NCBI RefSeq assembly: GCF_026151205.1
Contig: NC_087076.1
Location: 11,198,902-11,262,901, forward strand
Direction of reading: 5' to 3'
DNA: 64,000 bases
DNA from: Bolinopsis microptera
Lineage: Eukaryota; Ctenophora; Tentaculata; Lobata; Bolinopsidae
Shown: positions 666-53,912 of the stretch, piece after piece
How the letters are laid out: each line of letters opens with the position of its first letter
How positions within the stretch are numbered: position 1 is the stretch's first letter
The notes under the pieces: generated by a model
Told to the model about the DNA's origin: nothing
Databases searched by the model: none
What the model saw: the letters and a program-made list of their open reading frames with translations, nothing else
Program-made: the position numbers and the translations under genes

Positions 666-3198
666 CTAATTTATACAATCTACATTGAGAAATGAATCGG
701 AACTATCACTAACCGATGGGTCGAACGATGTGAATGAGATAGCAGGTTTTAGAAGTTTCACAACACTCCTTATACTCTCGACTATAGTTTGATTCAGGGA
801 GTTGTATCCACTCTGAAATGGAGTTATAATTATACAGGTATTTTAAATAAATTTTTGGGGCCCAATGTAATTGCTCGACTTTTCATCAGGTCTCTCGAGG
901 CCTTTTGTTTGGTTATTTGGGTGTATTGGTGTCCCCTGATTGTTATCATCGCTGTACACTTGTCAAGGCATTTTTTGGTTTCTCTAGTCCATTTTTAGAA
1001 ATTCTATACAACATTGATATTGTAATAAATTCTGATGATAATAATTGAAAGATTTCAATAAAAAAAAAAAGCTATATCTGTACAGTGTAGTACTCCGCTA
1101 ACCTAAGTAAACCGGGATTGACAAGGAGCCAAGATATAAATCAATGATCAGGACTCCTTGAAAAAAAAAATCATTAGAAAACTGCTGTAATTACCTCCAA
1201 AGTGGTACATCTGTCCATTTCTGCTACCCACTCTTTTCTCAACTCATCCAGATCACCACGTTGTCTCGTGTACGTTTCTAGGGTGGACAGTGCAGTGTTT
1301 ACATATATAGATATTATACCATCTACTTAAGTCCGTGGTCTGGAGGAAAGTTAATGGAAGGCCGGTGCGAATAAATGTGACAAAAAGCTAATGAGTTATG
1401 AGCATCATCAAACTTTCTCATAAATAACAATTTTACCAGTAAATTCAACTAGCTTATATATGGGCCTGTGGTGTATGCTAGAGAGAACAATATTCTGAAA
1501 AGAAGGAAACCATAAAATAGAAAAAGGAGCATTCATTAACCTGCCAATTTCTCGTTGTCTCGCGTGAGCGTCTTATTTTCGTACTCTATCCGTGAAATGG
1601 TGTTTATACTCGCGTTTAATGCACTAAAAGGAAAAGTAATGATACAACAAAGCGCTCAATGAATTATTAACTAGCTTGCTTGGGTTGATTAGTTTGAAGA
1701 CAGATTGTTAGAAAATCGCGTCGAAATAAAGATATTATAAATTCAAGATCTAAATCATTGCTAACTTTTGCAGTTCATCAATGTTTTCTTGAAGAGCATT
1801 TCGTTGCTTGGTCTGCTCTTCGATAGCTAGCGTGAGCGTTAAATTCGCTTTCCTGTTATAAATTATTTGTAGAATTAAATGATTATTGTAATGAACTTAT
1901 TTATCGGGTTTTCCCGGTGGCTGGTAGGTAATGCCAAATATGGTATTAAAGTAAGAAAGTTACATCCCCGCGTAGTAAAGGATGATTAGGTTACTGTTAT
2001 CACTTAACCGTGGTCGTGGTGTCTAGGGTTGCAACCTGTAGCTGCAGGTACTTACGTAATATATGACTATATAAGCTCATTCTTTACTTACGACTACGCC
2101 TACTCAATTATTTACGTACTAAACTATTGAGTCTGCCACCAGAGTTATTGAGTGACTTCTACAAGAAATTCTTTCAAATAATGATGATCACGATTTTGAC
2201 TTCTGATTAAACGAAATAAACACTTGATAAAAACTTACTCGGCTCCTTTTAGCTTCTTTTTCAAATCATCGATCTGAAAAATAATAGTTTAGAGTCGACC
2301 AACAAAACATTCTCTGCCTATACACGATAAAAAATACAACAAGGAGACGACCCATTTCAACTACCGGCTACCAGTTACATGATCGAACATACCACATAAA
2401 AAGTATGCCCAGCTACTGCTATCATGGACTTCTTTTTCCCACTTTTTTTGAGAGTCTTCTTTTCGGGAGTATCGGGAAGCCTTGAACGGTTAGAAAGATC
2501 ACCAGAGGACGACATGTTAAAGTTCGATGAACAACCGAACACACACAAGGAAAGAGGCGTGTACTAACAATAAAGCTCAATTATTCTGTTTTTATATTCT
2601 CACTGTAAAATTAGAATTGCATTGTGCAGGCCGGCGGGAGTAGGCGTGTGTCTTCTTTGTAGAGGCTTATGTACTAGATATCACCCCGTGCTTGGCAGAG
2701 TAATTATCTCACTTTTATCTTCAGCCATTGTTTAACGTTACCTTATATATAATGTATTCATGCTATTCGAAACATGAGATCAAACGAAAGAATGTTACAC
2801 ATGCTTAGCACGGAAACAAAAACCACTGTCACCGTGCATTCACTCCACACTTACTGTGACGTATTCATTGATAAAATCTCGAACAATCTTATACCAACCC
2901 TGCAGATTCATTATATTATAGTTTCCAAAACTTTGGGCTCTCTGAATTTGAGTACCAAAAATTTGGGCGGGGGATTTGGACTTTGCTACTAATTAAATTT
3001 ATTTTTGATTAATTTTAATCATGTAAACAATTTGAGCGAGAGGGCCGCCCAAATTTTCGGGAACTAAGGTAGCATACAGGCATAGAACAGTATCAATATT
3101 ACACAAGAAATAACAAGTGAAATAAAAAAGTAGGGGGATGATAATTTACCTCTTGCTTCAAAAGGGTGTCGTCTCGCCGTTGCATGGTTGCACTGCTC
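666..3198 (-). CDS. Host gene C-terminal coiled-coil block, exons 20-25
   Basis: Exons 3150-3198, 2239-2273, 1766-1852, 1541-1623, 1195-1325 and 666-812 keep phase. The peptide is a regular coiled coil (DDTLLKQE, IDDLKKKLKGA, LAIEEQTKQRNALQENIDEL, ISRIEYENKTLTRDNEKLA, LSTLETYTRQRGDLDELRKE). Exon 1195-1325 has a weak acceptor (CTTAAG or GTAG). Exon 666-812 (acceptor TTTCAG, 48 codons, stop TAG) is only a candidate: it is open and in phase, but could be chance, or could splice onward at a GTTAGT inside it. No transmembrane segment occurs, so a KASH tail is either absent or beyond the left edge. Confidence 0.5.
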
Positions 3199-6100
3199 CT
3201 GAAAAAAAAGCACTTTAAACAATTTAAAAGGCTATAAGTTTTGTAATTAAAATGTCTGGAATGTCACTGGACTCGGGGATTTAATACTAATAATCTTTCT
3301 AAATTGAAATTTTGCCTCGAAATAAAGCACTATACATTCGCGTTACACGGTGAAAATCGAGTCAAGGTAACCGTAGAGTATTTGATGAAGTTTCAGGGTA
3401 ATTTTATAGTAAGAAATGAGAATCATTTAGGCTTAGATCATGAGATCACATCTATTATATTACATAGCGACAAAGTTTATTAAATTGCACAAATTTAAGT
3501 GATCGTTGATATTTTGCCCCAGGTCCCCTCGGCCCTCATGTATATACATTGTTGTAGTGAAATAAACAGGCTATAGTGACATATACAGTTTTGCAGTGAA
3601 ATAAACATGCTATATTGAAATATACAGTGTTGTAGTGAAATATACAATGTTAAAGTGAAATATACAGGTTATAGTGAAATATACAGTGTTGTAGTGAAAT
3701 AAACAGGTTATAGTGAAATATACAGTATTGTAGTGAAATAAACAGGTTATAGTGAAATATACAATGTTATAGTGAAATATACAGTGTTGTAGTGAAATAA
3801 ACAGGTTATAGTGAAATATACAGTGCTGTAGTGAAATATACAGTGTTGTAGTGAAATAAACGTAGTGTTATAGTGAAATATACAATGTTAAAGTGAAATA
3901 TATAGTGTTGTAGTGAAATATACAGTGTTAAAGTGAAATATACAGTGTTAAAGTGAAATATACAATGTTAAAGTGAAATATACAGTGTTATAGTGAAATA
4001 TACAATGTTACAGTGAAATATACAGTGTTGTAGTGAAATATACAGTGTTATAGTGAAATATACAGTGTTAAAGTGAAATATACAGTGTTACTCAGTGTAC
4101 CTACCTGGTAGTTCATGGTGTGGTATTTAAGTGATCGTTGATATTTTGCCCCAGGTCCCCTCGGCCCTCATGTATATACATTGTTGTAGTGAAATAAACA
4201 GGCTATAGTGACATATACAGTTTTGCAGTGAAATAAACATGCTATAGTGAAATATACAGTGTTGTAGTGAAATATACAATGTTAAAGTGAAATATACAGG
4301 TTATAGTGAAATATACAGTGTTGTAGTGAAATAAACAGGTTATAGTGAAATATACAGTATTGTAGTGAAATAAACAGGTTATAGTGAAATAAACAATGTT
4401 ATAGTGAAATATACAGTGTTGTAGTGAAATAAACAGGTTATAGTGAAATATACAGTGCTGTAGTGAAATATACAGTGTTGTAGTGAAATATACGTAGTGT
4501 TATAGTGAAATATACAATGTTAAAGTGAAATATATAGTGTTGTAGTGAAATATACAGTGTTAAAGTGAAATATACAGTGTTAAAGTGAAATATACAATGT
4601 TAAAGTGAAATATACAGTGTTATAGTGAAATATACAATGTTAAAGTGAAATATACAGTGTTGTAGTGAAATATACAGTGTTATAGTGAAATATACAGTGT
4701 TAAAGTGAAATATACAGTGTTACTCAGTGTACCTACCTGGTAGTTCATGGTGTGGTATCAGAGAGCATGGTGGGACATGTCACATGATATTTCTAGCTAC
4801 CAACTAATCGGTATTGTAATTATTAGTTATATTACTCATAATTATTAGTTAAATTTACATTCAGACAGGAGGCAATGAACCTGACAAGGAGTCGTCAGTC
4901 AAGGCTAGATTTAAAAACGTTCGCTAAGACGAATATTAAGCAACAGTAGGGCACAACACAAGTAACAATAAGACGTGAACAAAGAGATGGGGCTCAATAG
5001 CGTAGGGCGGTGAAACCAGGAGAAACCACCTTCAACAGACCACTCACACACTAAAACACAATATAACTTAGCTAACATAAAAGAGGTAAAACTGGAGCTA
5101 GATACGTCCGCACCTACAAGCTCGAACAGGAGCTGTACATTCAGTGTACACAGGCCACAGAGGGAAGTATAAAAGCTTGCAGCAATGCAGGGACGCAGGC
5201 CCCTAATGGCGTAATGTTGTAATTACAGGAAGAACCTTGAACGGTGGTCCCCGGGCTCTTCTCAATTATCTGCGGGGCTCCCAATTAGTGGTACACTGAA
5301 TGTACGGACAGTTAGTAGACTAGTCTGTAGAGTCGTTATGGTAACATTACACACAACATTGGCTGCCTACAGTCTACACAGATGCTTAACTTGTTGACGA
5401 GGTTCTGGGTGTGGGAAGGTATAATTGGAGAGCTACCATCCGACCTCTCCTTCAAGATACCTGCTTAATAAGCAGTGCTTATTCGCTAGAAGCAGGGAGA
5501 TCACGTACAGAGGGCTTGGTACTCAAAGGAAAGGGATCGCTGAAACAGAATCTACAACCAACTGATTACGCAAGGAAATAAGTGCTTGTGTTTGAATAGA
5601 GATAAATCTCCAAGATACGATTATGGAGGTGTTGGATTAAGGACTATGGTTATAAATTGACTCTCTTTAATGAATTGTAAATACAAAGTAAAGGCTTACC
5701 GTATTTCTTTGACTTGTTCGTCGTCATCTTCTAGAGACTCCAAAGGAACGTCTTCATTCGGGAGACCAGATTTTACACTTTCAAACGAATCAATACTGGA
5801 AGTGGAACCCGCACATTCTGTGAGTTCCTCAGCTTCAGACGACTCTTTGCCACCGTTCTCATCATCGACTTTAGAATTTTCTGAGCCCTCTGACTGACCG
5901 ATCATCATTTCAGATCGCCGACTTAAAGTTAGATCCAGGCTTCGGGATATTTCACTGTCAGACCACGCTCCTACTTCACCGGGCGATTCCGACCCGGAGT
6001 CTAGTTCTGAGTTTTCAGAAACTGGGGCCTGCTCTTCAACTGCAACAGTAGGTGAGTGTTCTTCTAGAGTAGGTGACTGCTCTACTAGAGTAGGTGACTG

Positions 6101-9100
6101 TTCTACTAGAGTACTAGGTGACTGTTCTACTAGAGTAGGTGACTGTTCTACTAGAGTAGGTGACTGTTCTACTACAGTAGGTGACTGTTCTACTAGAGTA
6201 GGTGACTGTTCTACTAGAGTAGGTGAGTGTTCTTCTAGAGTAGGTGAGTGTTCTTCTAGAGTAGGTGACTGTTCTACTAGAGTAGGTGAGTGTTCTTCTA
6301 GAGTAGGTGACTGTTCTACTAGAGTAGGTGAGTGTTCTTCTAGAGTAGGTGACATTTCTACTAGAGTAGGTAACTGTTCTACTAGAGTAGGTGAGTGTTC
6401 TTCTAGAGTAGGTGACTGTTCTACTAGAGTAGGTGACTGTTCTACTAGAGTAGGTGACGGTTCTACTAGAGTAGGTGACTGTTCTACTAGAGTAGGTGAG
6501 TGTTGTTCTACAGTAGGCGAGTGTTCTTCTAGTACAGTAGGCGAGTGTTCTTCTAGTACAGTAGGTGAGTGTTGTTCTACAGTAGGCGACTGTTCTACTA
6601 GAGTAGGTGAGTGTTCTTCAATAGTAGGTGACTGTTCTTCTAGAGTATGCGAGTGTTTGTCAAGAGACGGTGACTGCTTGGAGATCTGCGAAGAATTATC
6701 TTCATTAGACGGTTGAGATACCATGCTACTATTGCCGTCTGTTCTGGAGTTACACTGAGTGTCTGAAGAAGCCGAGACTTCAGAAGTCAATTCTGAGCCA
6801 GAAGAAATCTCTGTGCCACCAACAGATTCTACAGCTGTTGACAACAATACAGCTACAGCTTCTGGACCTACATCTGGATCAGGTTCTGTATTGAGACAAG
6901 AATCATTGGGATCTGGCGAAGTTACAGTATCCATGACGAAACGTTCAAGTAAGACAGGGAGAAAGCTCAAACCTGGCTACCAAATTACGCAAAGTGACAG
7001 AATTATCCTATTAGGAGAAGGTGTATAGGGTGCGAAAGAGTGATGAATATTCAACCGAAGAACAATTATAGCAGGACTCGATGAGCATGAGGTAGATCTG
7101 AGTAACCGGGCGAAATGCTAATTTAGTAGGATCAGGGGACTGGGAGAGTCAGTGGATCATGCATTTGTATGGAGCAGAGGGGATGAAGTTATAACTTGAC
7201 TTGTTTTAATGAATTGTATTTACACAGTGTAGAGGCTCACCGTAGATCCAGACCTATTTCACTGTCAGATCAGACTTCACCGGGTGATTCCGGAGTTTTC
7301 AGAGACTAGAGTAGGTAACTGTTCTACTAGAGTAGGTGGATGCTCTCCAAGATTTAGTAGGAACTAGGAGAGTTAGTGCTCGGATCACGTATCCGATGAG
7401 TTTTGAAATGGTCATAACTTAGCCATATTTTAACCAATGAACTTGAAACTTTGGGAAACGTTTTCAATTATCAAGCCAAATGTGTGCAAAAAATTTTGAG
7501 TTCTTAGCTTAAAGCGTTCTCATTTTATGAAGACAATAGTGAAAAAGAGGGAGTGTCACACCACGCCCACTGTAATTGGGCGTGGCTTACGAAACTTTCA
7601 GGAAATCTAAGTTTGACCCATATCTATAATCTCTGAAATTTTGGTGCAATTTGGAGACGAATAACGTGAGTTATTAAGAGGTTGCGTGTGGGTAGTCACT
7701 TATGGGCCATTGTAATGCGTTAGCGTAATCAGTTTGACAATTTGACGACACTTTCAGTGACTGCTGTAATCTTACTATACATAAACCATGTACACTGTTC
7801 AGAAACTTCAATTCCCAACTTTATTCATTCATTATTTGATATTCTTCTCAGAAAGAGCAGATTTCGGCCTACCCGTACGGACTACGGGTGTTCTTTATCA
7901 GGGTAAAATCAGTTTCTAGCTTCTTTACAAGACGTCGTATTGTCCTATCAGCAAGTTTACTGAATTTAGAATTGTCCTTCTTCTGCAGCAAACGCCTAGC
8001 ACTTGTCACATTGCCTCCACAAATCCAATAAGTCTTCACAATATCGAGTTTTGTTTCTTTTGTGAACCCCATTATTCTCAAAATTCGAATTTTTGGAACA
8101 GAGCCAAAAAAAATTAACAAAGTTGAATCGCTGGAACAAATGAGCTTAACAAATTAAATTTGAAAGCTTTATGAACTAATGGCAACCGATAATGGGCATT
8201 TTGCTCCTTTATAAAAAATTGTATTGTTTTTTAAAATCAGGACATTATTTTTGAAACACCCTGTATATAAAGCGAGACGATATATATATAGCCTATAGGT
8301 ATATATTATATCCGTACCATTTTACTGACACCACGGCATCAACTTTAACACGACATTCCGCAAAATCCATAAAAGACAAAAAACTGAAATTTTGTTGACT
8401 GGGTCATAATCATATGCCATAATGGCCTTTAAATCAGCATAAAAAAAAAAAAAAATAGACCAAGAAATAAGAATTTAAGTGCCCAAAATTTGACCCCCAA
8501 ATGGTGTTTCTGCTTTGACAATTTGACGACACTTTCAGCGACTGCTGCAATATGGCTAACTTCCACATTATAATATGAACAGTAGCAATAATATGTCCAT
8601 ATTATATGCCTCGATTCTATCTGTTTAACGTGTTATCCCGATTTCTAAAGATTCCACCGAAGGAATTAGTTTAGAAAGTGTTAACACTTACTGTGGGGTG
8701 GAGGGTGGGGTTAATTGAGCACTCTCGTAGACGGTGACCACCTCGTTTCTGAGCTGTGCGTTTGTGCGGGTGATACTGACGATCTCTGCCTTCATTTCCT
8801 CGTACTCCGCCAGTATGTTCTCATAGTCAGAGCGCAGGCACACGTGCTCATCACCCAGCTTCCGGTGTTCAACTGAAAATTAGTATCATACTAAATGCGA
8901 ATAACTAAAAACGAGCGTTCAATTTGAAAGAATGAAGGGAGATTCATCATAACATATATATATATATTATATTAATGTCTGTATGCGTACCTAGCTTCCA
9001 GGCATAACGTCGACGGGCTTTTTCAGAACGCGATTTTGAGGCTATTTTGTCAAGTTTAAGTTGAAGTGGCTGCATAGCAGCATTTAAATTACACTTTCAA

Positions 9101-11016: not shown

Positions 11017-11058
<42 letters not shown>

Positions 11059-41000: not shown

Positions 41001-44000
41001 GGATATGGCTTTGCTCTCGAACAGCACTAAGGGCAGTTTCTACGGCTCTACGCTTGGTGATGGTGTAACCATAGCAGCGAGTACACCAAAAGAGCTTCCA
41101 TCATGGACAGATTTAACAAAGAAAAGACAAATAACAACACGGATTACTGACCCCCTCTCAGCGTTATCTTGGGACAAGTATGCAAAAAACTTAATGATCA
41201 GATACCTTTCCCAGTTTTTAATCACAGTCAGTTTAGCGTACAGAAGTGTAAAATGTACATGTACAAAAAGTATATCCCGAAATAACATTGCAGATTATCG
41301 TTGAGACTGTTGCTTGATAATGGTACCTACAAAGTTCTGCTAAATGAAGTGTCTGGAGTACTGCTGCAGGGAGAACTTGTGGCTATACTCGGTCCAAGTG
41401 GTGCAGGTTTGGCAGCTTAACACTTTAACCAGGGGCTTATTTTTAACAGATGGAAACATCTTCAGTTTGTTACATCCACTCTCCCAACTTTTAACCTACC
41501 CTGTTTAGGTAAGACGACTTTGTTAGACGCGCTGTTTGGCACGCTGCCAAAGAAAGCCCTTCTCACAGGCAAGATACGAAAGTGGCCGATAGATCGGGAA
41601 CTTGTCCAGGAGATACGGCCTGATTTAGTGTTATCAGGATCAGAGGGGACAAGTGTAGCGTACATTCCTCAGCATGACCTGTTCTATGAGACCCTGACCC
41701 TGCAGGAGCACCTCAACTTTCAAGTAACAATATACAATCATGTTACTCGGTTATATTATCCTGGTCAAACATATTATTATATGATCTGGGGACTTGGAGC
41801 GAGACAATATATTGTGTGGACACCAGGACACGTACAATGTAGTCAGTTGTCAGTACATTTATAGGATAATAGAATATGATGGATATGATCCATTCCGTGT
41901 CTAGCCGAGATCCTATTATAACAGGTTTTAACATCGACACTTACAATTAACACCTCTTAGTGGATGTAACTTAACATGGCCAGTCATTATCCGACCCATA
42001 TTCTCTAGGTTGTACTATGTACTTACTACTTAGTGCAACCAACGGTGCGGACTGCGGGCCCTTCGCGGACAAATATTTATTTGAGCAGTTTTTTATTGTA
42101 AAGTAAGAGTCAGGGGGAAATAATTACATGAAATTTTAAAAAATGTACTTGTAGCAAAACTTAGATTAACCATTACATTACATCTAAAATATAATTATAT
42201 CAAAATTAGAAAACTCAATCGCCCATTTACTTTTAGGGAATTCCATAGTTCCGTAAAGAAAAGTTACTTTTATAGTGTACGTCTGATAAGATATGATTTT
42301 GTGGTGTTTCTGGTGTAAAGCAGCTAGGTTATTAAGTGGCTGTCTGACAGTCGCACAGGGCCGAGTTGGTTCCATCCCTGCTACCATATCTCCAAGATAC
42401 AGAAAATAGCAGTGTTCAATTGTTATAGTCCTGTTGGAATTACAATAACGCGTAACTCTCTGAATATAACATTTTTCCGACCTGATTAACATTTAACAGC
42501 TGGATAGTTATACTGACCACCTGTTTCTTTCCACTTACTTCAATTACACCTCAATTCTTATAACAAACATTATAACCTTCTTAGTTCTAGAGTAAGATTT
42601 ACAGTATTAATTCTATTTTTATCACAAACTAGAGTGTTATATATTATACAGAGTGGTATAGTAGTTTCTCACGTGTACCTGCTAAGTGAGATAAGTGGAC
42701 GGTACCCAACAGAATCGTTCATATTATCTTAATGGTGAAAAAAATATATTTTATTTTATGTTTGATGTAAAAATACAGGTGGAGCTGAGAAAAGGGACAC
42801 GAGATGATAACTTAGTGACAGAAGTAATGTCTCAACTTTCATTGCAACACGCTACTGATACTATTATCTCAAATCTTTCAGGTTAATAGTTCAGAAATAA
42901 CAATCAATATCTTTCTGATCCGCTGAATTCCAGGCTAAGTGCGGTATCAACACAATTTGTAACTTATATGTATAAACCCATTGTCACCTAGTCTACGGAG
43001 AAGCTAAGGATCCATTCGCATTTGATCTATGCGAAATTACACATCTGTGTAATGTCTCCTCGGTCGACTCAGCCGAATGATAGGAAATGTGATTGAGGGT
43101 TAAATGAGGACTGAGGAGGGGCTCTGCCGAAAGATCAAGAATCTTCCTAGGATACCCCTTCAGTACATCTACTTTGTAGTGTAATGTAAATATAGTATTA
43201 TAATATATTATAAATCCTTATAAATAATAAATAAAACTGGTAACAGGAGGCGAGAGAAGACGAGTTTCAGTAGCAACAGAGTTGTTATCAGAACCAACAT
43301 TCCTTTTGTGTGATGAGATAACAACAGGACTAGATATGTTTCAAGCTTTACAACTGGTTAAGTGCTTGAAGGGATTGAGAGCTACTGGAGTGCTCTGTAC
43401 TATTCATCAGCCTCCTACACAGGTAGCCAGTTTGTTGCACCGTGTACTTGATCATAATCCACCGCAGTCATTATACGTTGAATAAAACAGTTATTCCAGA
43501 AAATCCAGAACTAATTCTCTACATCAAGATTTTACAAATTCAGGTAAAACTATAAATGTACAGCACAATGTTTAATTCCCAGGTATTTTCTTTGTTCACA
43601 AGATCCATGTTCCTGGTGGGAGGAAGTCTCAAGTCGGAGGGAACACAGGACCATATTCTAGAGCAGTTTGAAGGGCTGGGATACCCCTGTCCTCCTACTA
43701 ACAATCCTGCAGACTTCGTTATCAGGGTACTGAGTGCTGGTTCTACTACAGAGGTAGGTGGGAACTGTAATGACTTGTCAGTTGTCACGCGGTATATACA
43801 TGATAAGGAGGAAGCGTTATTATAACTAATAGTCATCTTAGTTGTAGTGTAATTCTTGGAATGAACACGTGTATTTTCTGGGTACAGTAGATGACGGCGA
43901 TACAATGCGTATTTTAAGATATTACCATTTGTTGAATTATTAACGAGTACGCCATTATTTGAACCTGACAATATTAAACATCAGCTGGACTGTAGGTCAC

Positions 44001-47000
44001 TGTGGAGATCAAGTTACCTCAGCGATCATGTGTAAATTGAACACATGACCACTGCGAGGTCTCAGTGGTCGCTGTTATATGGATTTCATTAGAGCTGGAC
44101 ACGCTCACCCACAATCACAGAGAGGGAGGGAGTCTCAGTCAATAGTCAATACGAATTATAAGCTCACCTCCGCCTTGTCAAATTTCGTTTTTATTATCAG
44201 AGAACCTGTCAATGGGAGGAATATATGGAGTTTCAATAAAACACTGCCAAGCCATGGTGGAGGTGGCTCTCTCTCTTTTTTTGGTCACGTGACATGACCT
44301 CAAATATCATGCACACTGTCTCAGGATCTGTCATGCTGTGACGTCATTACAATCCCAGCACTACACCCCCATCAAATTAGCTCGAATAAATTAATTAATA
44401 ACTCTCTCTCTCTCTCTCAGCGATCGTACAGAGAGTTTTTGGATAACGTGGAGCAGATGTACAAGCAATCTAAAAGTAGCTATATCTCAGACTTTCTAAT
44501 TGAGGTAGGGAAGCAGGATTGAAAGCATTGTTAATTTGCAACATGTTCTTATTTTGCGACAACCATATATTTAATTTGAAACGAAATTAGTGGTTGGTAA
44601 TAGTTTGAATTATTAATTTGCGGTTGATTATAATATTGAATTATTAATTTGAATAGACTCACAAGTGTCAAACAAAATAAGGTGACAATGTCTGACCATT
44701 ACAATTTTATAACATGTACTTTTAATATTAACTGCCTTTGACCCATACTTTATGACGTTCTAAGAAAGTAATTTTAATGAGTCACACAGAAACCATGATA
44801 AAAGAACCGTAACTCTCATTGGACAAGCTCCGACTTATATTACGTCAGCAGCTATCTTGGACATGTTCTGACTCATTAAAAATAAATGTATCGATAAAAG
44901 TAATATTTTCTGACAGGTGCACGGCAAGACAATGAACAGGGAGCAGCCAGGGAGCGGACGCGGGGAGAGAGTGTCGTACAGTAAGGAGTGGTGGTTATTG
45001 TTAAAACGAACTGCTACCTACACTGCTAGGTTATCTTTAATCTTAGAGTACAGTTAAGATAAATATTTTTAACTGGTATCTACTATCTACTATCTATCTT
45101 TTAGCGTTCAGCTTAGGAAAGTTTTTATGTACATGTATGATGTAGGCTACATTAATATTCATATTGGGGCACCTATGATTCAAATTCTTGAATCTTGATC
45201 CTTATACATATTCAGTTATGGATTGAAGATAAAGCGCTCTAAGCCTGCCGGCACTCGGCAGCTAGGCTATATTTTGTAATAGAATATTTTTCAATTCTTT
45301 TCTTCTTTTGTAGAGTCCTTTACCAAATACGGTCTTCGGATGCATTGAGTGTTAACAAAAGGAAATCACATTTAAATATTTGCCGGTTACACTGAACACA
45401 GGAAGAAACTATGAGCAGGGTGTGCGTGAAAAGTAATCATACCTTTTTTGGAGCACACGCTGGCCGATAGGGCGGATGTAATAGCAACCCTACTAATAGC
45501 AACCCTACTATACGTTAAAACTATCATTCAATGTGCACATTTGAAAATACTTTGTAGGCTGTTTTATGTTTCTCGAACAGTCGGGAGGATCACATGCTAC
45601 TACTCATGTCTGGGATTGGACAAAGAATAACCTGTTATACTGCGTGTGCTGGATCAACCTCTAGCAGCAGCAAGCTACATGATGCTACTAGTTATTTTTG
45701 GTAACTTGCAAAGTAGTGGCGCACAGGCGCAAGGTAATTGGAGCAGCCAGTACGGACTAGAACCGATTACTGAACATAAAACCGAGGTTATCTCATGATT
45801 ACTCATAATCTTACCGGCCAAGCATGGCGGAGCACTTAGAATTTACGTCATCTTATAGAAAAAAATTAATTGTGAGTTTAAATTAGTAACAATCTCCTAA
45901 TTAACTTGGTAATAATCTCAGGGATAAAGTGTACAAACGAGTGAGAGTATTCCAAGTAGTTTTCATCTCCCTGATTCTAGGACTACTCTACTTCAACACT
46001 ACCCCAAACAACGTTCAGAATATCATGGGCAGTCTCTTTTTTCTCCTCATCAACCTCTCCTTCTCAGCTATCTTCGCTACTCTCCAAACCTTCCCAAACG
46101 AGCTCCCTGTTTTCAGGTACTCATAATATAATAATATAACACATAATATAACACATAATATAATGTACGCACTACAACTTTCATAAATGGTAAGAGATCA
46201 TCCACCTAATCTTCAATATTATAGGAGAGAGTATAAGAATGGAGTTGCGAGGATTGGGCCGTATTTTCTGGCTAAAACGCTGGCAGAGTTTCCATTTTAC
46301 CTCATCTACCCGACCATCTACATTATCATTGCTTACTTCCTAGTCGGATATACGGCAACAGCGGTAAGTTTTATTTCCAAATATAATTTTTTGGTTATTG
46401 ATGTGTTTTGTTGTGAATTTTTAAGGCCGGTGAAAACTTTATATTGTAGCTTACTGCAAGATATTAAAAGTGAAATCTTGCAAAATTGAAGCCGACAGAG
46501 ATACCAAAATTAAAAACCGGCCAAGCTGTAGATCTGTATTATCCATCGTAACACAAATATCGGCTGTTGTTCTATTATATTACATAGAGTGGGAGCAAGA
46601 GACCTTGGCCTTTGACATGCTCCTTTAAAGCTGTAGAGAATTCCAAGAAATGCTAGAATTGGAGCGACATACCAAGCTTTTAGTAGCAATTAGCAAGGGA
46701 CTAGACGGGACTACAAAGCAAATTAAAATGCGGCGTCCTTAAAACCCGGGACTGATATAAAATATTAATAGTATTACTTTATATTTTATCAATTTGTGGG
46801 CTATGCAAAAGTTTTACCAGACGAAGATGCATTATGAAAGCAAGCATTTAAAATGCCAGATCATGAAACTCTCAATTTCAGGCAAAGTTCTTCACATTCT
46901 GGTTTGTGATGTTGCTCGTTTACCACACTTCTCTCTCTGTTGGGTACCTCATATCTTCTCTAGCTGCCTCTCCCCAGATTGCTAACGCAATTGGACTACC

Positions 47001-48394
47001 CATCGGAGTTATTTTCTTTCTCTTTGCAGGTTCAGAAACTTCTATATATGGTCAAACGATATAAGCTGATACCTGTTGGACAAAGAAGTGATCATTATCC
47101 AATGCACTTGGTGCCGCATGAAAATGTTTTGTTGTATTCTCTATACAATTATATTGACTCAGTATACATCTCAGGTTATTTCATAACGGTCCCAACGATA
47201 CCCAAATTTCTGAGATGGTTGGTTTACCTTTCCTACATGTACTTCGGGTACCAAGGGATAATGACGAACGAGTTTAAAGGTGTGGTCTTTGAGAATAACT
47301 GTACTGTCAAGTGTTCCAAGTGGAACTCCGGTGACCAGGTAGGCAATGAAATAAGGTTCCATAAATATTGTTTCTCAGAATGAAACATGCTACATATTAC
47401 TACATGAATATTTATTTAAATATTCACGGTTAAAAACTGACGAATACCACGTGTACGTGGTAGATTATTATAACGGCAGTATTCTAACAGGTTCTGGAAG
47501 TGTATGGATTTTCAGGGTCCAACACTCTGCTGATAGACTCAACAGTGTTGCTGTGTTTCCTGCTGGGCTTGCGACTCGCTGGTTATCTAGCTTTATCAAT
47601 CACTACAAAGAAGCGATAAAATTATTGCGCCGCACTCCTCACCTGTTTGATGTCACTTTCTTTGTGTACCCAGTTATTTCGTACGTAAGCAATGATCTCG
47701 GCTGATTTTACCACTCCAGAGCCGTTGCTGCACGCATCAAACACCATGGACGCCACATGGGAGGTGTCCCATTCATCGTAGTTTTGAGTTGTCTGAAACA
47801 CAGCAGATATTATAATATAGTCACATGTGCCGTGAACTACTATTTAAAGTTATAAGCGCAAATTTCGAGATGATTTTGAGTTATGGTGCAAATATGCTTT
47901 CAATTTTAAATTGATATTTCTGATGGTTTAAAATATTTTGTCGATAGTTTTGTCGTTGTAGTATTACTGTTTCGAATTTACACATTTTGATTAACACTAA
48001 TAAAAAATAAATAATGTGCTAAAACTGTGTATTATTGGTTATTGATGACCTATTCTATGTTCTGTACCTTTCTTTAGTACTTTCTAACTGAATAAGAGAT
48101 AACAAACACGAACTACAACAGGGCACTGATAATACCCTATCATTATTGACAAAATAGCTTCCTCTATCTAAAGCTATAATTTATTGAAATCTCTACTTGC
48201 AGCTTTTATGGCCTCCACCCTCCCCTACAGCATCACTTGAGAACTCTTCTTATATAATTGTCTGAATTGAACACCTCTGTAACATTAATAACTATGGCTG
48301 AAATTAAAAAGAAGTACAACTTTAATCAGTAAATACTACCAAACACACGTATTACCTGTGTTTTCGGTGAGCCAATCAAATTTACAGCTTCCAT
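666..48394 (-). CDS. KASH5/IRAG2-like EF-hand coiled-coil protein, proposed 25-exon host gene
   Basis: Proposed exons, 5' to 3': 48356-48394, 47643-47792, 40368-40483, 39974-40004, 39589-39659, 39042-39182, 38630-38664, 36916-36968, 25713-25778, 22250-22321, 20214-20258, 19779-19817, 13369-13436, 12727-13003, 12517-12590, 9539-9576, 8991-9041, 8692-8872, 5700-6965, 3150-3198, 2239-2273, 1766-1852, 1541-1623, 1195-1325, 666-812. Phases agree at every junction (3345 nt, 1114 aa). The start ATG has an in-frame TGA 12 bases upstream. The first 100 residues form a degenerate EF-hand pair followed by coiled coil, the layout of KASH5-type dynein adaptors. Coiled coil resumes after an S-P-T repeat exon. 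Family assignment is from recalled similarity, not a search. Weakest points: the 36916-to-25713 junction across ZFYVE26, the right edge of 5700-6965, the choice at 22250, and the last two exons. It could instead be two or three adjacent genes. No KASH/TM tail was found. Confidence 0.5.
2393..2515 (-). CDS. Candidate alternative first exon giving a short C-terminal isoform
   Basis: An ATG at 2515 opens 41 codons starting MSSSGDLSNRSRLPDTPEKK, followed by a Lys-rich stretch (KKSGKKK), up to a strong GTATGT donor. It ends in phase 0, so it can join exon 2239-2273, which the long transcript also reaches in phase 0 from exon 3150-3198. No acceptor precedes it in a usable position, as expected of a first exon. 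A weaker donor inside (GTAGCT after residue SMIA) would also keep phase. An alternative reading is that this is the true start of a separate gene. Confidence 0.5.
3497..4757. repeat. 19-bp repeat array duplicated as two 632-bp blocks
   Basis: Units of TAGTGAAATATACAGTGTT and variants run through two blocks. Each block starts GATCGTTGATATTTTGCCCC (3501 and 4133) and ends with CTACCTGGTAGTTCATGGTG. The two blocks differ at only a few positions, so the block duplication is recent while the units inside are more diverged. It lies in the host-gene intron between exons 3150-3198 and 5700-6965. Confidence 0.9.
5700..6965 (-). CDS. Host gene large repeat exon: about 28 tandem 7-residue S-P-T units
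   Basis: This is the longest exon of the host gene, about 421 codons. An acidic Ser-rich N-terminal part leads into roughly 28 tandem units alternating EEHSPTL and VEQSPTL, with variants LEEHSPTV, VEQLPTL, VEMSPTL and VEPSPTL, then a second acidic Ser-rich part (SESPGEVGAWSDSEISRSLD). In DNA the unit is 21 bp. Nearly every unit carries an S-P dipeptide, a possible proline-directed kinase site (inference); the prolines exclude coiled coil. The donor is a strong GTAAGC and phase 2 matches the next exon at 3150-3198. The right boundary is uncertain: GAG at 6965 is the only AG I found giving the required phase, and it lacks a good pyrimidine tract. A further small exon may lie between 6965 and 8692. 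Confidence 0.7.
7195..7350 (-). pseudogene. Decayed copy of the end of the S-P-T repeat exon
   Basis: The stretch matches the 3' part of exon 5700-6965 and its downstream intron: two repeat units (PTLVEQLPTLV), then SENSG, then stop codons, with a GGTGAGCC donor and intron bases like those at 5655-5699. It lies only 230 bp upstream of the live exon, so it is a local duplication that has lost its frame. Confidence 0.65.
7869..8275 (-). pseudogene. Decayed Tc1/mariner-like transposase N-terminus (DUF4817-type HTH)
   Basis: From 8120 on the minus strand a helix-turn-helix stretch reads MGFTKETKLDIVKTYWICGG, then NVTSARRLLQKKD, of the kind at the start of DUF4817-type transposases. The frame breaks at SPYG: an in-frame TAG follows, while the next frame continues GRPKSALSEKNIK, so a frameshift is present. 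Just upstream (about 8230-8275) is CAGGGTGTTTCAAAAATAAT on the minus strand, which resembles the terminal repeat of this superfamily. The catalytic domain and the other end are missing. Confidence 0.6.
8692..13436 (-). CDS. Host gene central block, exons 13-18
   Basis: Exons 13369-13436, 12727-13003, 12517-12590, 9539-9576, 8991-9041 and 8692-8872 join in phase 2, 0, 2, 1, 1, 2. The 277-bp exon is acidic (EEFEDFSQEQFLSEEQ) and then has a leucine-rich helical stretch (LDDFSNLITSTAKQLNRVL). The following exons read as one continuous basic-to-acidic helix (SEKARRRYAWKLVEHRKLGD, then DYENILAEYEEMKAEI) and end in a Pro-rich LTPPSTP just before the S-P-T repeat exon. I do not recognise a named domain. 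The acceptor of 8991-9041 was chosen for phase; another in-frame AG lies further upstream. Confidence 0.6.
11011..11059. repeat. (GA)n microsatellite
   Basis: About 49 bases of GA dinucleotides with two GGG interruptions, in a host-gene intron. Confidence 0.95.
15692..16375. mobile_element. Non-autonomous hAT element, 684 bp
   Basis: The ends are inverted, CAGTGATGCACGCCG and CGGCGTGCATCACTG, and flanked by the 8-bp target duplication AGCGCTTG (15684-15691 and 16376-16383), the hAT signature. Both ends are GC-rich with repeated CGGCGGCG and GGCGTGGCGG motifs; the middle is AT-rich with no transposase. The flanks (near 15535-15570 and 16535-16560) share AGGGGGTAGGGGGTCT in opposite orientation, so this element probably jumped into an older inverted-repeat element. 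Confidence 0.85.
16661..16725. repeat. 9-bp tandem repeat (ATCACAACT / ATCGCAACT)
   Basis: About seven units of a nonamer; the last units share an A-to-G change, so they expanded together. Confidence 0.85.
17331..17580 (+). repeat. Direct repeat copy 1 flanking a LINE endonuclease fragment
   Basis: About 230 bp (CTGGTTATTGGTAACAGATG through CTTCCAATTAAATACAATAT) recur at 19032-19261 in the same orientation with only a few differences and a roughly 20-bp insertion near the start of this copy. The two copies bracket the endonuclease fragment at 18070-19050. Confidence 0.85.
18070..19050 (+). pseudogene. LINE endonuclease (EEP) domain fragment, one in-frame stop
   Basis: One frame carries the apurinic-type endonuclease motifs of non-LTR retrotransposons: GTLNVRTIRE, GIQEHR, VVGDLNAH, SQIGFI and SDHRVF. 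It resembles the craniofacial development protein 2-like group of LINE proteins. A TGA at about 18394 interrupts the frame; no reverse transcriptase follows, and a direct repeat replaces it. It sits in a host-gene intron. Confidence 0.8.
19032..19261 (+). repeat. Direct repeat copy 2 flanking a LINE endonuclease fragment
   Basis: Partner of 17331-17580. It begins within the last codons of the endonuclease frame, so the frame ends in repeat-derived residues (ARGHHI). Confidence 0.85.
19779..25778 (-). CDS. Host gene middle block, exons 9-12
   Basis: Exon 25713-25778 (phase 0/0) encodes VKREAVLNESDDSSGVYLPS plus two residues. Exons 20214-20258 (15 codons) and 19779-19817 (13 codons, CKKTIAELKEHIA) have clean acceptors (CTGCAG, TTTCCAG) and donors (GTAGAT, GTAAGT). 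Between them lies the exon at 22250, which can be read as an internal low-complexity exon (22250-22321) or as an alternative first exon. The block continues the coiled coil into exon 13369-13436 (FLKKENEVLDCHVNQL). Introns here hold a 292-bp satellite, a 51-bp repeat and a LINE fragment. Confidence 0.5.
20305..20406. mobile_element. Short foldback (hairpin) element
   Basis: The ends TGGTTAGATTGGCGGGTTCT and GAGAACCCGTCGATCTAAAC are imperfect inverted complements about 100 bp apart, bordered by AT-rich TATA sequence. No coding content. A MITE remnant is likely. Confidence 0.5.
21959..21980. repeat. Poly-G run of about 22 bases
   Basis: An uninterrupted G tract in an otherwise AT-rich intron; the length may be subject to assembly error. 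Confidence 0.9.
22250..22390 (-). CDS. Candidate alternative first exon with a transmembrane segment
   Basis: From ATG 22390 the frame reads MYDFLLLIAALLATSTVIYS and then CFKSYRP followed by a Ser/Thr/Asn/Asp-rich tail ending in a CAG|GTGAAG donor, phase 0, matching exon 20214-20258. This would be an N-terminal signal anchor. The caution is that hydrophobic codons are pyrimidine-rich: the same bases can serve as the polypyrimidine tract of an acceptor ending TTTCAAG at 22322, making 22250-22321 an internal exon that also fits phase 0. Both may occur. The tail repeats DNTTDND-like units. Confidence 0.4.
22479..23352. repeat. 51-bp tandem repeat array interrupted by a LINE tail
   Basis: Units of about 51 bp (AATTAGCTGCACATCCAACC, then AGGACACCTTTACTCCTAAT, then TTATGTGTCAT) occur four times before 22690 and about seven times after 22980. 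A single further unit lies at 25258-25300, beyond the 292-bp satellite. Units differ by a few substitutions. Confidence 0.9.
22697..22972 (+). pseudogene. LINE ORF C-terminal fragment
   Basis: A short open frame ends EIRSVMLDRDVWRGIVAART followed by KKPT and a stop, the usual C-terminus of RTE/CFDP2-like LINE proteins (a D-R-D-x-W-R-x-I/L-V motif near the end). It begins without upstream reverse transcriptase and lies exactly between the two halves of the 51-bp repeat array. Confidence 0.65.
24228..25255. repeat. 292-bp satellite, about 3.5 copies
   Basis: The string GTTCTTTAATTAGAGC recurs at 24251, 24543, 24835 and 25127, exactly 292 bp apart. Copies 2 to 4 look virtually identical; copy 1 differs at its start. 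The array stops mid-unit at about 25255 and is followed at once by a fragment of the 51-bp repeat. It lies in the host-gene intron upstream of ZFYVE26. Confidence 0.95.
26594..33814 (+). CDS. ZFYVE26: ZFYVE26 (spastizin / FYVE-CENT), single-exon
   Basis: One uninterrupted 2406-codon frame; human ZFYVE26 is about 2540 residues in many exons, so this is near full length. A FYVE finger lies at residues 1739-1797 with all hallmarks: WVDD (the WxxD motif), CQIC, RKHHCR, CRWCG, CDKC, and VRLCWGC in place of R-V-C. FYVE fingers bind PI3P on endosomes. Spastizin partners spatacsin and AP-5 in lysosome reformation and works in autophagy and cytokinesis (family knowledge). The remainder is helical repeat-like and Leu-rich, with a Ser-rich low-complexity linker near residues 673-720. 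An in-frame TGA at 26579-26581 supports ATG 26594. It lies inside a host-gene intron on the opposite strand. Absence of introns in an intron-rich neighbourhood suggests retroposition or complete intron loss. No frame damage is visible, so it looks functional. Confidence 0.95.
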   Translation: MGRTSTGFNSLKNVVISGKEEIKSVVKQVVDQLLNKDDSNLTDCEPLYVALRILYNTNESGLDSTMNLLQAELLLRQNQHILSPTSLSFIRTVLFTSKDFSLSRRVGGFISLNPTLLDVCQHIPDLPTTFLTFFNKTIVEKAGLEEAFQSTLANCLKRIMQKNKVLSTEDLKKYLISVDTEHMGQDVKASLQNSLVYFLEQHANEPHSKLYQLCLVSLSALDTPYLLADALKEKRHNLRATTHLAEHLNTSFDQFVVSALYDTLDRGSSFIEELLHSGLQHLQRREYEQVRTMFGDTPLKMLKPLLLAMIWDEVDNHQDQAVLLEELSYNAAPNERFVRTVFSSVRDQVEVGKWCEEHVKPLLKDSWNSAAAATVTSSRSILQVILLLNCIEKLGQGKVLGLMFNVKDKDTTDANDLPLSDSQTMDQGKDIVTFCSAMVVCNVVLWLQKKSNSEEVDSGENADELDLAEKHLSRVFPLFNRAEVLSTAFSSLVHALKQPKCGVTLNDCEVLVDWFCKQLSQFEEDETALSLGHFDTVKIFRDLSFEAQDHRSLYKQLKTAVDEARWRVGLLKTLTETRSRKRRELKRLASSALLSFMCSTQQDLMRLCLISENTERATETLHRYGMKTTHLAKVVDFQNDYNKCIKELERFGATIKKQKQAAKPTLTIPQIGSGTQNKSSTQGSQSGSSKVRSTSMSSTSSSITSTISVVSRVPSMSSMPVTLRNVATAAARSGEKTRVPAIVSKLISTLTMDQLMIECEAYDVDNETLIARLLADMACSISAPKSVGLQLISLALDRIQNSVVPDSLIETYMKKLHAILKMLDGKPYPGITVATSSPREYLNSIYPCISHDVLQDLLEFNENQAVAYRDLKNAISDKGPLDVVRMEGALECAKDALSINNYTTFLSTHDKHRDYFESLISYLKGYVEKFNSSLEDTPHQVYFSPSEIFSKSPQYHIGELILEENIHPKMLSEAAEYLSVDMLQLVVMSSFPQVCLEESADNYPSSITVDIPAPGEDDEDNVAIILNKLQIICSNLPDPKLLPLHVLMTHLENCQVRYGNDTAPGLDLVRLLTTSISSHKPISALKPSRFKPLHLLGLLQQDQSVEYSGENLEDQVKTACKSWLGTHAYINADNELHLTLHPLALIATIILKQTRRGQRLLLAFYSLYTEIVFEFLGDEIETLIGCVRTEIVVREEEGVFYLCSQDTRGRIKMLTSSCFNFKSTINCSKCKDIDENLLYRTDLKPMTSGFDFVRGHSDCLAALGYMFNALDSKELYGAGVLIDDALLAYPALQKYVALRAGPYIQTVDTQFVDLMRSSCQRKGLQQDVLGCQLFGGPNTRFLSHLLSCMVEYNLQLQRHNEIYETLSSEAAREIYGDKIPDIILLLTLDKRAPVAPNFISLLLEIQDKLLGLEFARERYQDWPVNIATECFTYFSEVLAGEPDCISMIFSCLERLSTMGRISKILNYLQISLNTCTSIEEFIIKRSEDFTQLMTAHKEFALCHSAIKLGILTGDYEARLLAEHVLFMAENDNFDTLDIYNLLENKLTLEVCNTLCSLIQQHTNNLKIVLQLIDIILDKFQPLLSRQKMTSLKEQRLGAHCYREIKFRKVANYEEYSQLLFKPLILIEQLIMNFQIHTASQLVETHSEQFIECDLTSSLDALIKLYIGKSLYYEGTRKSDTTSGSTAYSTISRATTMSRKAPLTVFNPPFKGSTSKTSRVSRKISREEQQFPIPTSPVQWVDDKKVKRCQICKLKFTFIVRKHHCRWCGRVLCDKCAPTRPPTSYFGASVRLCWGCYGAVQEGRYSEGAEVDMTEDITTLYNPPFEVLSTDAEYNLDTRESYSFTTAPSSELCLYLSRMLSQSSPPGDVLLALCENLSETIMESISLEPDRNFSHILGVLENVLKEARNCFRRRGVSNKVEETNIFIAYIQICRRLPLTDLAMMPPMKSLLKSETLHNTYMSLLDKQYPQMAISLCTTARRDPLGLWRRWGFQCLRSGDYPAARDKLEMCLKSKQYNQAILDEIIHHLENCLPSFLAETIDFAELVADIKRKCKKQRLNSSQFDECVFYLSTYSSPVRLLQFFVRHNAISRAAKLALQHDYDIVYEGVIGPLIKTGRLSDVFDYINSNRAEIQVWERKLTHCCKLLSEKGDLTSVYSVQFFLREYLSAAKTAILMLRNELSVKEQLKFLYKAEDCFKAYLEQKEGDETTIPEINTRISHIHLQRQILEFLKSKQIKDNNNNIHIFSSKTDKSTVIKMLYQIDSVECLPIIRAIRDTFSRSYTETYLPLINILLKAQPAGNISMWFPKLIKLLGEVPDSQTDELLLSVCNDLKGEQKSFERILAIMKDDRTKIKANVKAGYLKNAYILAVNKKMREEIVELEKECEKQGDTQVREFCRKYLQHNKPPA
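34210..34215 (+). terminator. Polyadenylation signal AATAAA downstream of ZFYVE26
   Basis: A canonical AATAAA lies 396 bases after the ZFYVE26 stop and is followed by a T-rich stretch. It is a reasonable 3' end for the transcript; the intervening sequence is AT-rich with no other gene. Confidence 0.5.
34558..34900 (+). promoter_or_regulatory. Promoter-like stretch with TATA box and a 21-codon frame
   Basis: GATATAAAAAGAG at 34659-34671 looks like a strong TATA box in an otherwise gene-free part of the intron. About 180 bases on, an ATG at 34831 opens 21 codons (MAKKHGHATCNATVIAALTE plus one) to TAA, followed by a small hairpin (GAAGAC/GTCTTC). It could be a solo LTR, an orphan promoter or chance. 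I do not claim a gene. Confidence 0.25.
36916..40004 (-). CDS. Host gene first coiled-coil block (5 exons)
   Basis: Exons 39974-40004, 39589-39659, 39042-39182, 38630-38664 and 36916-36968 have GT/AG boundaries and agree in phase. The translation passes from an acidic S/T-rich linker (residues like TIESSTTESLL) into a heptad-like coiled coil containing SLKKENQSLKEQIS and DLVDEVRDLTLRLKN. The L-x-x-E-N pattern resembles the coiled-coil start that follows the EF-hands in KASH5. The donor of exon 39042-39182 is GTAGGA; reading through it meets a TAG at once, so an unspliced transcript would end there. Confidence 0.6.
37360..38360 (-). pseudogene. Degenerate tandem duplicate of host-gene exons 5 and 6
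   Basis: This block parallels 38430-39860 in order: shared intron sequence (CGATATTGCAAATTTTTAAT), then about 37700-37825 resembling exon 39042-39182, then about 38095-38170 resembling exon 39589-39659, then shared sequence near 38215-38270 and 39695-39780. The exon-like parts carry indels and stops. The counterpart of exon 38630-38664 is missing. Alignment was by eye, so edges are approximate. Confidence 0.6.
38923..39020. repeat. 14-bp tandem repeat (ACAAGTCTGAACAA)
   Basis: About seven near-perfect units immediately next to exon 39042-39182 of the host gene. Confidence 0.9.
39534..39581. promoter_or_regulatory. Palindrome and RFX-like X-box
   Basis: GTTACCATGGCCATGGTAAC (39534-39553) is a perfect 20-nt palindrome. 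GTAACCATGGTAAC (39568-39581) fits the RFX X-box consensus GTNRCC-ATRG-YAAC at every position. A second full match lies on the minus strand at 40177-40190. They are 5' intronic sites of the host gene; RFX binding is inferred, and RFX sites often drive ciliary genes. Confidence 0.35.
40368..48394 (-). CDS. Host gene N-terminal block: start exon and paired EF-hand exons
   Basis: Exon 48356-48394 encodes MEAVNLIGSPKTQ and has a GTAATA donor. Exon 47643-47792 (50 codons, phase 0/0) carries MVFDACSNGSGVVKSAEI, an EF-hand-like helix-loop-helix. Exon 40368-40483 carries LLICLDPAASNEGLQFSEF, a second EF-hand-like unit. The spacing of the two units matches what I recall of the KASH5 N-terminal domain, which binds dynein light intermediate chain. 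Both loops lack the canonical acidic positions 3 and 5, so calcium binding is unlikely (inference). The 7.2-kb intron between exons 2 and 3 contains the whole plus-strand ABCG gene. Confidence 0.65.
41005..47619 (+). CDS. ABCG (White-type) half-transporter
   Basis: Exons 41005-41177, 41294-41406, 41509-41723, 42779-42881, 43247-43422, 43583-43753, 44421-44504, 44917-45029, 45922-46116, 46225-46363, 46882-47029, 47175-47338, 47491-47619 join in phase to 640 aa, the normal ABCG length. The ATP-binding domain comes first: Walker A GPSGAGKTT (91-99), Q-loop PQHDLF (about 150), signature LSGGE (200-204), Walker B FLLCDEITTGLD (220-231), H-loop TIHQPP (His 255), and the ABCG marker NPADFVIRVLS. Six membrane spans follow from about residue 375, with a Cys-containing loop before the last span. 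Half-transporters dimerise to move lipids, sterols or pigment precursors; the substrate cannot be told here. DEITTGLD replaces the usual DEPTSGLD. The gene sits wholly inside a host-gene intron on the other strand. The first exon may extend upstream; ATG 41005 is the likely start. Confidence 0.9.
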
Positions 48395-53341: not shown

Positions 53342-53912
53342 TTTCTGTTACCTGTGTATTGTGCTCTGCCAATTGCATCACTTGATTTAATTGAATGCAT
53401 GTAAGTAAGTATGTATGATCACAGACAACGGGGAGAATTAGGGTCTAGAAATTTCTTACAATTATGTGTTTTGCGTTCCTAGCGTTTCCTAAAAATTGAA
53501 ATTTTTGTTCAACTTGAGAGAAGTTTATAAGATTTTCCTGGGGAAGTAATGTTTATTTTTTTGATTTAGCATAAGTCTCTTATACTGTCTTTGTGGTGAG
53601 TTATAATTATAGTTGCCTCCATTGTTCAATAACTGGCACTATCCAAGAAGTCTGGCGGAATTCCGCTTGAATATCTTGAAACGGAATTTGGGTAGGATTG
53701 TGGTCAGGGTTATGGTTAAATGGTTTACACAGAATTCCAGTGGTCGGGATTCTTGGATACTGCCACACCTTATAATTGATGTTTGGGCTGTATGTGTATT
53801 TTATTGTTAAGGTAGTCAGTCATCAATACTTAAGTCATCAATTTCTGAAGCTAATAGTGGGAGTTCATTTCCTTCATCTCCTCTGAAATACTAATTTACT
53901 TTAAATGTAGGT

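What the first reader, a model, noticed from the sequence alone, without database searches (positions are those of the whole stretch)
666..48394. One minus-strand gene of about 48 kb hosting two unrelated plus-strand genes
Twenty-five splice-bounded coiled-coil exons keep phase across the whole left three-quarters of the window. The ABCG gene lies in one intron and ZFYVE26 in another, both on the opposite strand. Phase agreement at 24 junctions is far beyond chance for the set, though the single junction over ZFYVE26 has a one-in-three chance of fitting by accident.
Basis: partly seen in the sequence, partly recalled or inferred. Interest (0 to 1): 0.75.

Follow-up and report, generated by a model that had tools for sequence, protein, structure and literature searches.

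The report
Long antisense gene hosting two genes
In what is probably a comb-jelly genome, a long, intron-rich gene for a coiled-coil membrane-anchored protein carries two unrelated genes on the opposite strand in its introns; this arrangement is common in animals, but here the host gene probably runs past the window edge and its full length still needs RNA proof.

Summary
Partly confirmed. A minus-strand exon chain with consistent phase is really there (chain score 86.7 against 14.4 on the plus strand; without tandem repeats 74.5 against 14.4, and at most -0.2 in 40 simulations). The ABCG coding sequence (41005-47619) lies between two of its exons, and the single-exon ZFYVE26 gene (26594-33814) between two others.

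Corrections. (1) The chain probably does not end at 666: exon 812-714 has an in-frame donor and ten more exons lead to a stop at window coordinate -4956, outside the window. (2) Exon 36266-36216 was missed, so the jump over ZFYVE26 starts at 36216. (3) The ABCG stop lies 24 bp from host exon 2 and its first AATAAA beyond that exon, so its 3' UTR probably overlaps the exon antisense. (4) The host's C-terminal part matches Pfam MRVI1 (IRAG1/LRMP family) above cut-off in three of six constructs and ends in one transmembrane tail.

One continuous 53-kb transcript is possible but unproven: an in-phase ATG exon at 6934 could mark a separate or alternative IRAG-like gene, and several joining exons were placed by eye. 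The genome looks like a lobate ctenophore; 2357 nested intronic genes are published for another ctenophore (PMC8527503, passages). New member of a known kind; modest interest.

The parts
47643..48394 (-). Host exons 1-2: 48394-48356 (ATG, weak) and 47792-47643 (EF-hand-like half, by eye)
   Evidence: exon 2 total 13.3, null 0.017 per 10 kb; exon 1 not scored there
40368..40483 (-). Host exon 3 (second EF-hand-like half, by eye), next exon after ABCG
   Evidence: total 10.4, null 0.067 per 10 kb
36216..40004 (-).
25713..25778 (-). Probable host exon beyond ZFYVE26, phase 0/0 (VKREAVLNESDDSSGVYLPSNT); left out of the 31-exon model but compatible with it
   Evidence: total 9.5, null 0.1 per 10 kb
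19779..19817 (-). Host exon 10 (CKKTIAELKEHIA), phase 0/0
8692..13436 (-). Host exons 11-15: 13436-13369 (weak), 13003-12727, 12590-12517, 9576-9539, 8872-8692
   Evidence: the program also proposed 12058-12003 and, at one penalty, an 8742 end, which I dropped
5700..6934 (-). In-phase exon beginning ATG (MDTVTSPDP...) with about 28 seven-residue repeats; likely first exon of an alternative or separate transcript that joins exon 3198
714..3198 (-). Host exons 16-21: 3198-3150, 2273-2239, 1852-1766, 1623-1541, 1277-1195, 812-714 (the last by eye); exons continue outside the window (L006) to -4956
41005..47619 (+). Guest 1: ABCG-type half transporter, multi-exon; last exon from about 47488 (by eye) to 47619; nearest AATAAA at 47999
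26594..33814 (+). Guest 2: ZFYVE26 (spastizin) as a single exon of 2406 codons; AATAAA at 34210; only full match found in this genome

Best explanation
A minus-strand gene with many small exons encodes a long coiled-coil protein whose C-terminal part belongs to the IRAG1/LRMP (MRVI1) family and ends in one transmembrane segment plus a 36-residue tail, so it is probably a tail-anchored protein of the ER or outer nuclear membrane. Its intron 2 holds the whole coding sequence of a plus-strand ABCG transporter and a later intron holds the plus-strand, intronless ZFYVE26 gene. The three are transcribed separately and the host introns are spliced out with the guests. The ABCG 3' UTR probably overlaps host exon 2 antisense, so some mutual interference is possible. 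Shown by sequence: exon chain, phases, domains of all three. Inferred: that the exons on the two sides of ZFYVE26, and those upstream and downstream of 7 kb, are on one transcript; membrane location; interference.
For: Chain score far above the plus strand and simulations. Phase agreement 13 of 13 (single-open-frame pairs) and 27 of 30. A 1119-residue reading frame over 31 exons with one stop, at the end, and its strongest hydrophobic stretch at 1065-1083. MRVI1 over the curated cut-off of 27.0 bits in 3 of 6 constructs that held the region (28.7; 28.2 and 28.0); 0 of 4 reversed or shuffled controls. No good terminal exon between 36216 and ZFYVE26. Exons beyond ZFYVE26 in matching phase (25778, 19817). 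Guests: FYVE 7.9e-17 and TPR_ZFYVE26 4.9e-15; ABC_tran 1.1e-6 and ABC2_membrane 2.5e-26. AATAAA 380, 396 and 630 nt after the ABCG, ZFYVE26 and host (-4956) stops, none of AATAAA/ATTAAA within 700 nt of the rival stops 22714, 8688, 666.
Against: No RNA data. The join over ZFYVE26 and the join 8692->3198 each fit phase with a one-in-three chance. MRVI1: one 172-residue fragment stays below cut-off (25.6 bits), the full 1119 residues list no MRVI1, and a C-part without exons -2037 and -3064 lists nothing. Exons 812-714, -555, -857, -2037 and -3064 were placed by eye; the program's best chain instead goes from 1766 straight to -1472, also in phase, and when allowed down to -30000 it runs on past -4956 into a neighbouring gene. 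An ATG exon at 6934 joins the same acceptor. The polyA argument is mild: by base composition I estimate about 1.2 such hexamers per 700 nt, so none is expected in nearly 3 of 10 stretches. The EF-hand reading has no database support.
Confidence: 0.48

Rival explanations
1. Two neighbouring minus-strand genes: an upstream coiled-coil gene (48.4 kb to about 8.7 kb) that hosts ABCG and ZFYVE26, and a separate IRAG/LRMP-like gene that starts at 6934 (MDTVTSP...) and ends at -4956. The two may share exons by alternative promoters.
For: In-phase ATG exon 6934-5700 with a good donor (3.7) joins 3198; an AG lies 38 nt upstream of its ATG; disordered N-terminus, coiled coil and C-terminal anchor is the described IRAG2 layout (PMC10298018, passages). 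A mobile-element piece (DUF4817) lies between 8692 and 6934.
Against: The upstream gene then lacks an end: 8872 ends in a full donor gtaagt in phase 2, which fits 3198; no AATAAA/ATTAAA within 700 nt of the read-through stop at 8688.
Confidence: 0.27
2. The EF-hand/coiled-coil block (48.4-36.2 kb) ends just beyond ZFYVE26 with a transmembrane exon at 22887-22714, as a short KASH5-like gene, and a different gene begins at 22.4 or 13.4 kb. Both guests stay nested in the first gene.
For: 25778 (0/0) and 22887 fit in phase and give a hydrophobic stretch (19-mer mean 2.65) and a short tail; an ATG exists at 22390 and at the end of exon 13436.
Against: Exon 22887, scored as an internal exon to 22781, is at chance level (0.6 per 10 kb); 9 of 347 ORFs of 50 residues or more in the window reach 2.4; no Pfam or PDB match; no polyA hexamer within 700 nt.
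Confidence: 0.09
3. The exons on the two sides of ZFYVE26 belong to different genes, so ZFYVE26 lies between genes and only ABCG is nested.
For: Phase 0 on both sides fits by chance in one case of three; long introns produced by leader mapping were excluded as artefacts in the Hormiphora analysis (PMC8527503, passages).
Against: No acceptable terminal exon for the left block in the 2.4 kb before ZFYVE26 and no ATG in frame in exons 25778 or 19817.
Confidence: 0.15

Closest known systems
Nested intronic genes of the ctenophore Hormiphora californensis (PMC8527503)
   Same: Genes inside introns of a host; 2357 such genes in 1654 hosts, 12.24% of exonic bases (passages)
   Different: That annotation rests on Iso-Seq; here only sequence. 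ABCG here probably runs over a host exon with its 3' UTR
IRAG1 / IRAG2 (LRMP, JAW1, KASH6), Pfam MRVI1
   Same: MRVI1 segment over cut-off in three of six constructs, coiled coil, one C-terminal TM anchor and short tail
   Different: Longer (1119 residues if one gene), with a possible EF-hand head and many more coiled-coil exons upstream; the tail has no PDB hit at E 10, although a SUN1-KASH6 structure is published (PMC10827754, passages)
KASH5 (CCDC155)
   Same: Possible N-terminal EF-hand pair (by eye), coiled coil, TM tail
   Different: KASH_CCD stays far below its cut-off (21.1 against 43.3 bits); the genome scan with it lists 38 matches, none in this locus, best 32.4 bits; alignment with recalled human KASH5 not significant (best E 0.20)
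Nested Drosophila genes on opposite strands (Henikoff 1986; seen only as a reference-list entry)
   Same: Opposite-strand gene within a gene
   Different: One guest, proven by transcripts (recalled)

Membership tests
Nested intronic gene (PMC8527503 definition) | Guest transcript within one intron of the host: ZFYVE26 | tested here: inconclusive
   CDS 26594-33814 and AATAAA at 34210 lie between exons 36216 and 25778; depends on the unproven join
Nested intronic gene (PMC8527503 definition) | Guest transcript within one intron of the host: ABCG | tested here: inconclusive
   CDS inside intron 2, but the stop is 24 bp from exon 2 and the first AATAAA (47999) lies beyond that exon
IRAG/LRMP (MRVI1) family | Pfam MRVI1 over curated cut-off | tested here: met
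   28.7, 28.2, 28.0 bits against 27.0 in three of six constructs; 25.6 in a fragment; not listed for two. The matched exons lie outside the window
IRAG/LRMP (MRVI1) family | C-terminal TM anchor | tested here: met
   Strongest hydrophobic 19-mer of the model at 1065-1083 (2.93), 36 residues from the end; the 12 best 19-mers all overlap it
IRAG/LRMP (MRVI1) family | Binding to IP3 receptor or SUN proteins | not testable with these tools
   Tail has no PDB match at E 10
KASH5 | KASH_CCD over cut-off | tested here: not met
   21.1 bits against 43.3; unspecific in this genome
KASH5 | N-terminal EF-hand pair | tested here: inconclusive
   By eye only; no EF-hand family or EF-hand structure listed
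ZFYVE26 (spastizin) | FYVE and ZFYVE26 TPR domain | tested here: met
   7.9e-17 and 4.9e-15
ABCG half transporter | ABC domain before ABC2 membrane domain | tested here: met
   ABC_tran 1.1e-6 and ABC2_membrane 2.5e-26 on two joined fragments, in that order by coordinate

The most novel reading that the evidence does not exclude
The whole chain is one 53-kb gene whose protein joins a KASH5-like EF-hand and coiled-coil head (a dynein-adaptor head in mammals, PMC10071310, passages) to an IRAG/LRMP body and tail anchor. If so, KASH5 and the IRAG/LRMP proteins may have split from one ancestral outer-nuclear-membrane/ER adaptor, kept whole in a ctenophore.
Probability: 0.15. Interest if true: 0.5.

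Novelty: new member of a known kind. Interest (0 to 1): 0.28.

Why it matters
It is another host of opposite-strand guests, here with a probable antisense overlap between the ABCG 3' UTR and a host exon. More useful is the identification of the host: an IRAG/LRMP-type tail-anchored protein in a probable ctenophore, which would push this family back towards the base of animals and, if the head belongs to it, bear on the origin of KASH proteins.

Tried and rejected
Self-training of the exon model on 184 kb drifted towards antisense and repeats and was not used; two earlier runs of that script failed, as did (name clash, rerun) and the last loop (only the 40 simulations at penalty -7 ran). Program exons that I dropped: 60733, 54746, 12058, 9598 (replaced by 9576), 7995, the 22450/22365 pieces and, before masking, antisense ORFs inside ZFYVE26. 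CpG profile across the window showed no clear gene borders. KASH_CCD as a marker was dropped because it rings on many coiled coils. MRVI1 searched by six frames over the genome gave nothing; a domain cut by introns can be missed, so no conclusion. Paralogue of the host: 14 of 14 listed matches lie in this locus (query was an earlier 618-residue model). Retroposition marks of ZFYVE26: best flank repeat 11 bp, one run of 8 A far downstream; not supported, not excluded. The Hormiphora leader sequence is not enriched here (22 matches with 3 mismatches against 24 for the reversed control). Heptad register over ZFYVE26 was looked at by eye only and is not used. Structure prediction was not used, because a spliced protein is not a letter-for-letter reading of the window.

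The ctenophore assignment is an inference: five Wnt loci among 17 matches, 18 innexin matches, 22 of 22 pattern hits on contigs numbered 13 or lower (but a KASH_CCD hit lies on C50), 264.65 Mb and GC 38.6% in 184 kb. Bolinopsis microptera has 265 Mb, 13 chromosomes, GC 38.5% but 346 scaffolds against 232 contigs here (PMC11797021, table in passages). No call names the organism.

Full report
What was claimed. A 48-kb minus-strand gene from 48394 to 666, with ABCG in one intron and ZFYVE26 in another, both on the plus strand.

The guests. ZFYVE26 is one open frame of 2410 codons, 26582-33814; from its first ATG at 26594 it has FYVE (7.9e-17) and TPR_ZFYVE26 (4.9e-15). It is the only full match listed in the genome; the other 10 of 11 listed matches cover the FYVE finger only. 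The ABCG gene is multi-exon, from 41005 (predicted ATG) to the stop at 47619; its last exon was read by eye in the frames. Two joined fragments hit ABC_tran and ABC2_membrane.

The host exons in the window. I wrote an exon-chain search that uses generic splice matrices and codon usage from ZFYVE26 only, so it was not trained on the host. It gave back the chain. With the guests removed, the minus strand scores 86.7 and the plus strand 14.4. Leaving out two tandem-repeat stretches the values are 74.5 and 14.4, and 40 simulations of that repeat-free DNA reach at most -0.2. Single exons were scored against simulated DNA: 25 of 34 listed lie at or below 0.6 chance segments per 10 kb. The other nine are 40004, 39797, 22390 (no acceptor), 13436, 12058, 812, -857, -2037 and -3064; those of them that I keep rest on phase and neighbours. 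Exons 1 and 31 were not scored there. The exon 1 start is weak: masked runs began at 60733 instead.

The host probably does not stop at 666. With 60 kb of flank on each side, the best chain ran past the window edge and ended at -4956 when the search was limited to -12000; limited to -30000 it ran on into a neighbouring gene. That chain skips from 1766 to -1472, in phase. Reading the sequence, I placed further exons that fit in phase: 812-714 with an in-frame donor, -555, -857, -2037 and -3064; 1623 and 1277 come from the window-limited runs. The ten exons outside the window begin at -555, -857, -1472, -1759, -2037, -2317, -2624, -3064, -3709 and -4692, with the stop at -4956 (window coordinate = L006 position minus 10000; C5:11193945). 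The model has 31 exons, 1119 residues and one stop (one search had one wrong border). Phase: 13 of 13 and 27 of 30. The three misses involve exons 1 and 4, both weak.

What the host is. The C-part with the window's last exons scores 28.7 bits to MRVI1 (cut-off 27.0), 118 residues on 118 profile positions; two other constructs give 28.2 and 28.0, and 0 of 4 reversed or shuffled controls match MRVI1. Against this: a 172-residue fragment alone scores 25.6, below the cut-off; the full 1119 residues list no MRVI1; a C-part that lacked exons -2037 and -3064 listed no family. So 3 of 6 constructs pass. The strongest hydrophobic segment is at 1065-1083. IRAG2/LRMP is described as a type II membrane protein with a disordered N-terminus, a coiled coil and a C-terminal anchor (PMC10298018, passages). 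So the C-part is most likely an IRAG/LRMP-type tail-anchored protein. The N-terminal part looks to me like KASH5 (EF-hand pair, coiled coil), but KASH_CCD is below its cut-off and unspecific, and a BLASTP with recalled human KASH5 is not significant.

One gene or more. For a jump over ZFYVE26: no good terminal exon in the 2.4 kb before it; the exon at 36266-36216; exons 25778 and 19817 beyond it in phase 0 with no ATG. Against: the chance of a phase fit is one in three. For a join 8692->3198: same phase 2, full donor. Against: exon 6934-5700 begins with ATG, ends in phase 2 and joins the same acceptor, so an IRAG-like gene or alternative promoter may start there; a DUF4817 mobile-element piece lies in between. 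Rival ends at 22714, 8688 and 666 lack AATAAA/ATTAAA within 700 nt, while the ABCG, ZFYVE26 and -4956 stops have AATAAA at 380, 396 and 630 nt; this is mild evidence.

ABCG and host exon 2. The ABCG stop ends at 47619, the host exon 2 edge is 47643, and the first AATAAA is at 47999. The ABCG mRNA therefore probably covers exon 2 (47643-47792) antisense and ends before exon 1. This is inference from the signal alone.

Organism and what is known. In the ctenophore Hormiphora 2357 nested intronic genes in 1654 hosts are published, and spliced leaders sit on 56% of Iso-Seq reads (PMC8527503, passages). The arrangement is thus ordinary for such a genome. Library searches for an intronless ZFYVE26 (no paper), KASH5 with invertebrate terms (one unrelated paper), KASH5/LRMP with cnidarian or ctenophore terms (two papers, not opened) and MRVI1/LRMP with EF-hand or invertebrate terms (no paper) showed, judged from the listings, no paper on this host gene; the library holds only open-licence papers.

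Verdict.

Noticed in passing
26582-33814 (+): ZFYVE26, a gene of 2406 codons, has no intron although its neighbours have many; it may be a retrocopy that replaced the original, but no A tail or clear target duplication was seen.
   Followed up: partly
L006 5841-5970 (window -4159 to -4030), minus strand: An in-phase alternative last exon (RQNPDSSRKQ...LMLDFD*) without a TM segment, which would give a soluble form of the host protein.
   Followed up: no
5700-6934 (-): About 28 copies of a 21-bp repeat (6047-6647) encode SPTLVEQ-like heptapeptides in an ATG-led exon; the repeat is also open on the plus strand.
   Followed up: partly
7870-8061 (-): Mobile-element piece with a DUF4817 helix-turn-helix (1.3e-5).
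   Followed up: partly
18049-19050 (+): Open frames that look to me like a LINE endonuclease fragment (recalled); a 57-residue piece had no Pfam hit at E 0.01.
   Followed up: no
22478-22692, 22984-23329 and near 25.3 kb: A 51-bp repeat (AATTAGCTGCACATCC...) around the 22.7-22.9 kb hydrophobic ORF, with a piece near 25.3 kb seen by eye; also a 292-bp repeat in 3.5 nearly identical copies at 24245-25255.
   Followed up: no
3542-4722: 20-bp tandem repeat in 58.7 copies between host exons.
   Followed up: no
53911-57589 (+) and 60590-62742 (+): Two further plus-strand genes: one with DUF4659 (2.4e-7) and a polyprenyl synthetase (1.7e-39), probably farnesyl diphosphate synthase.
   Followed up: partly
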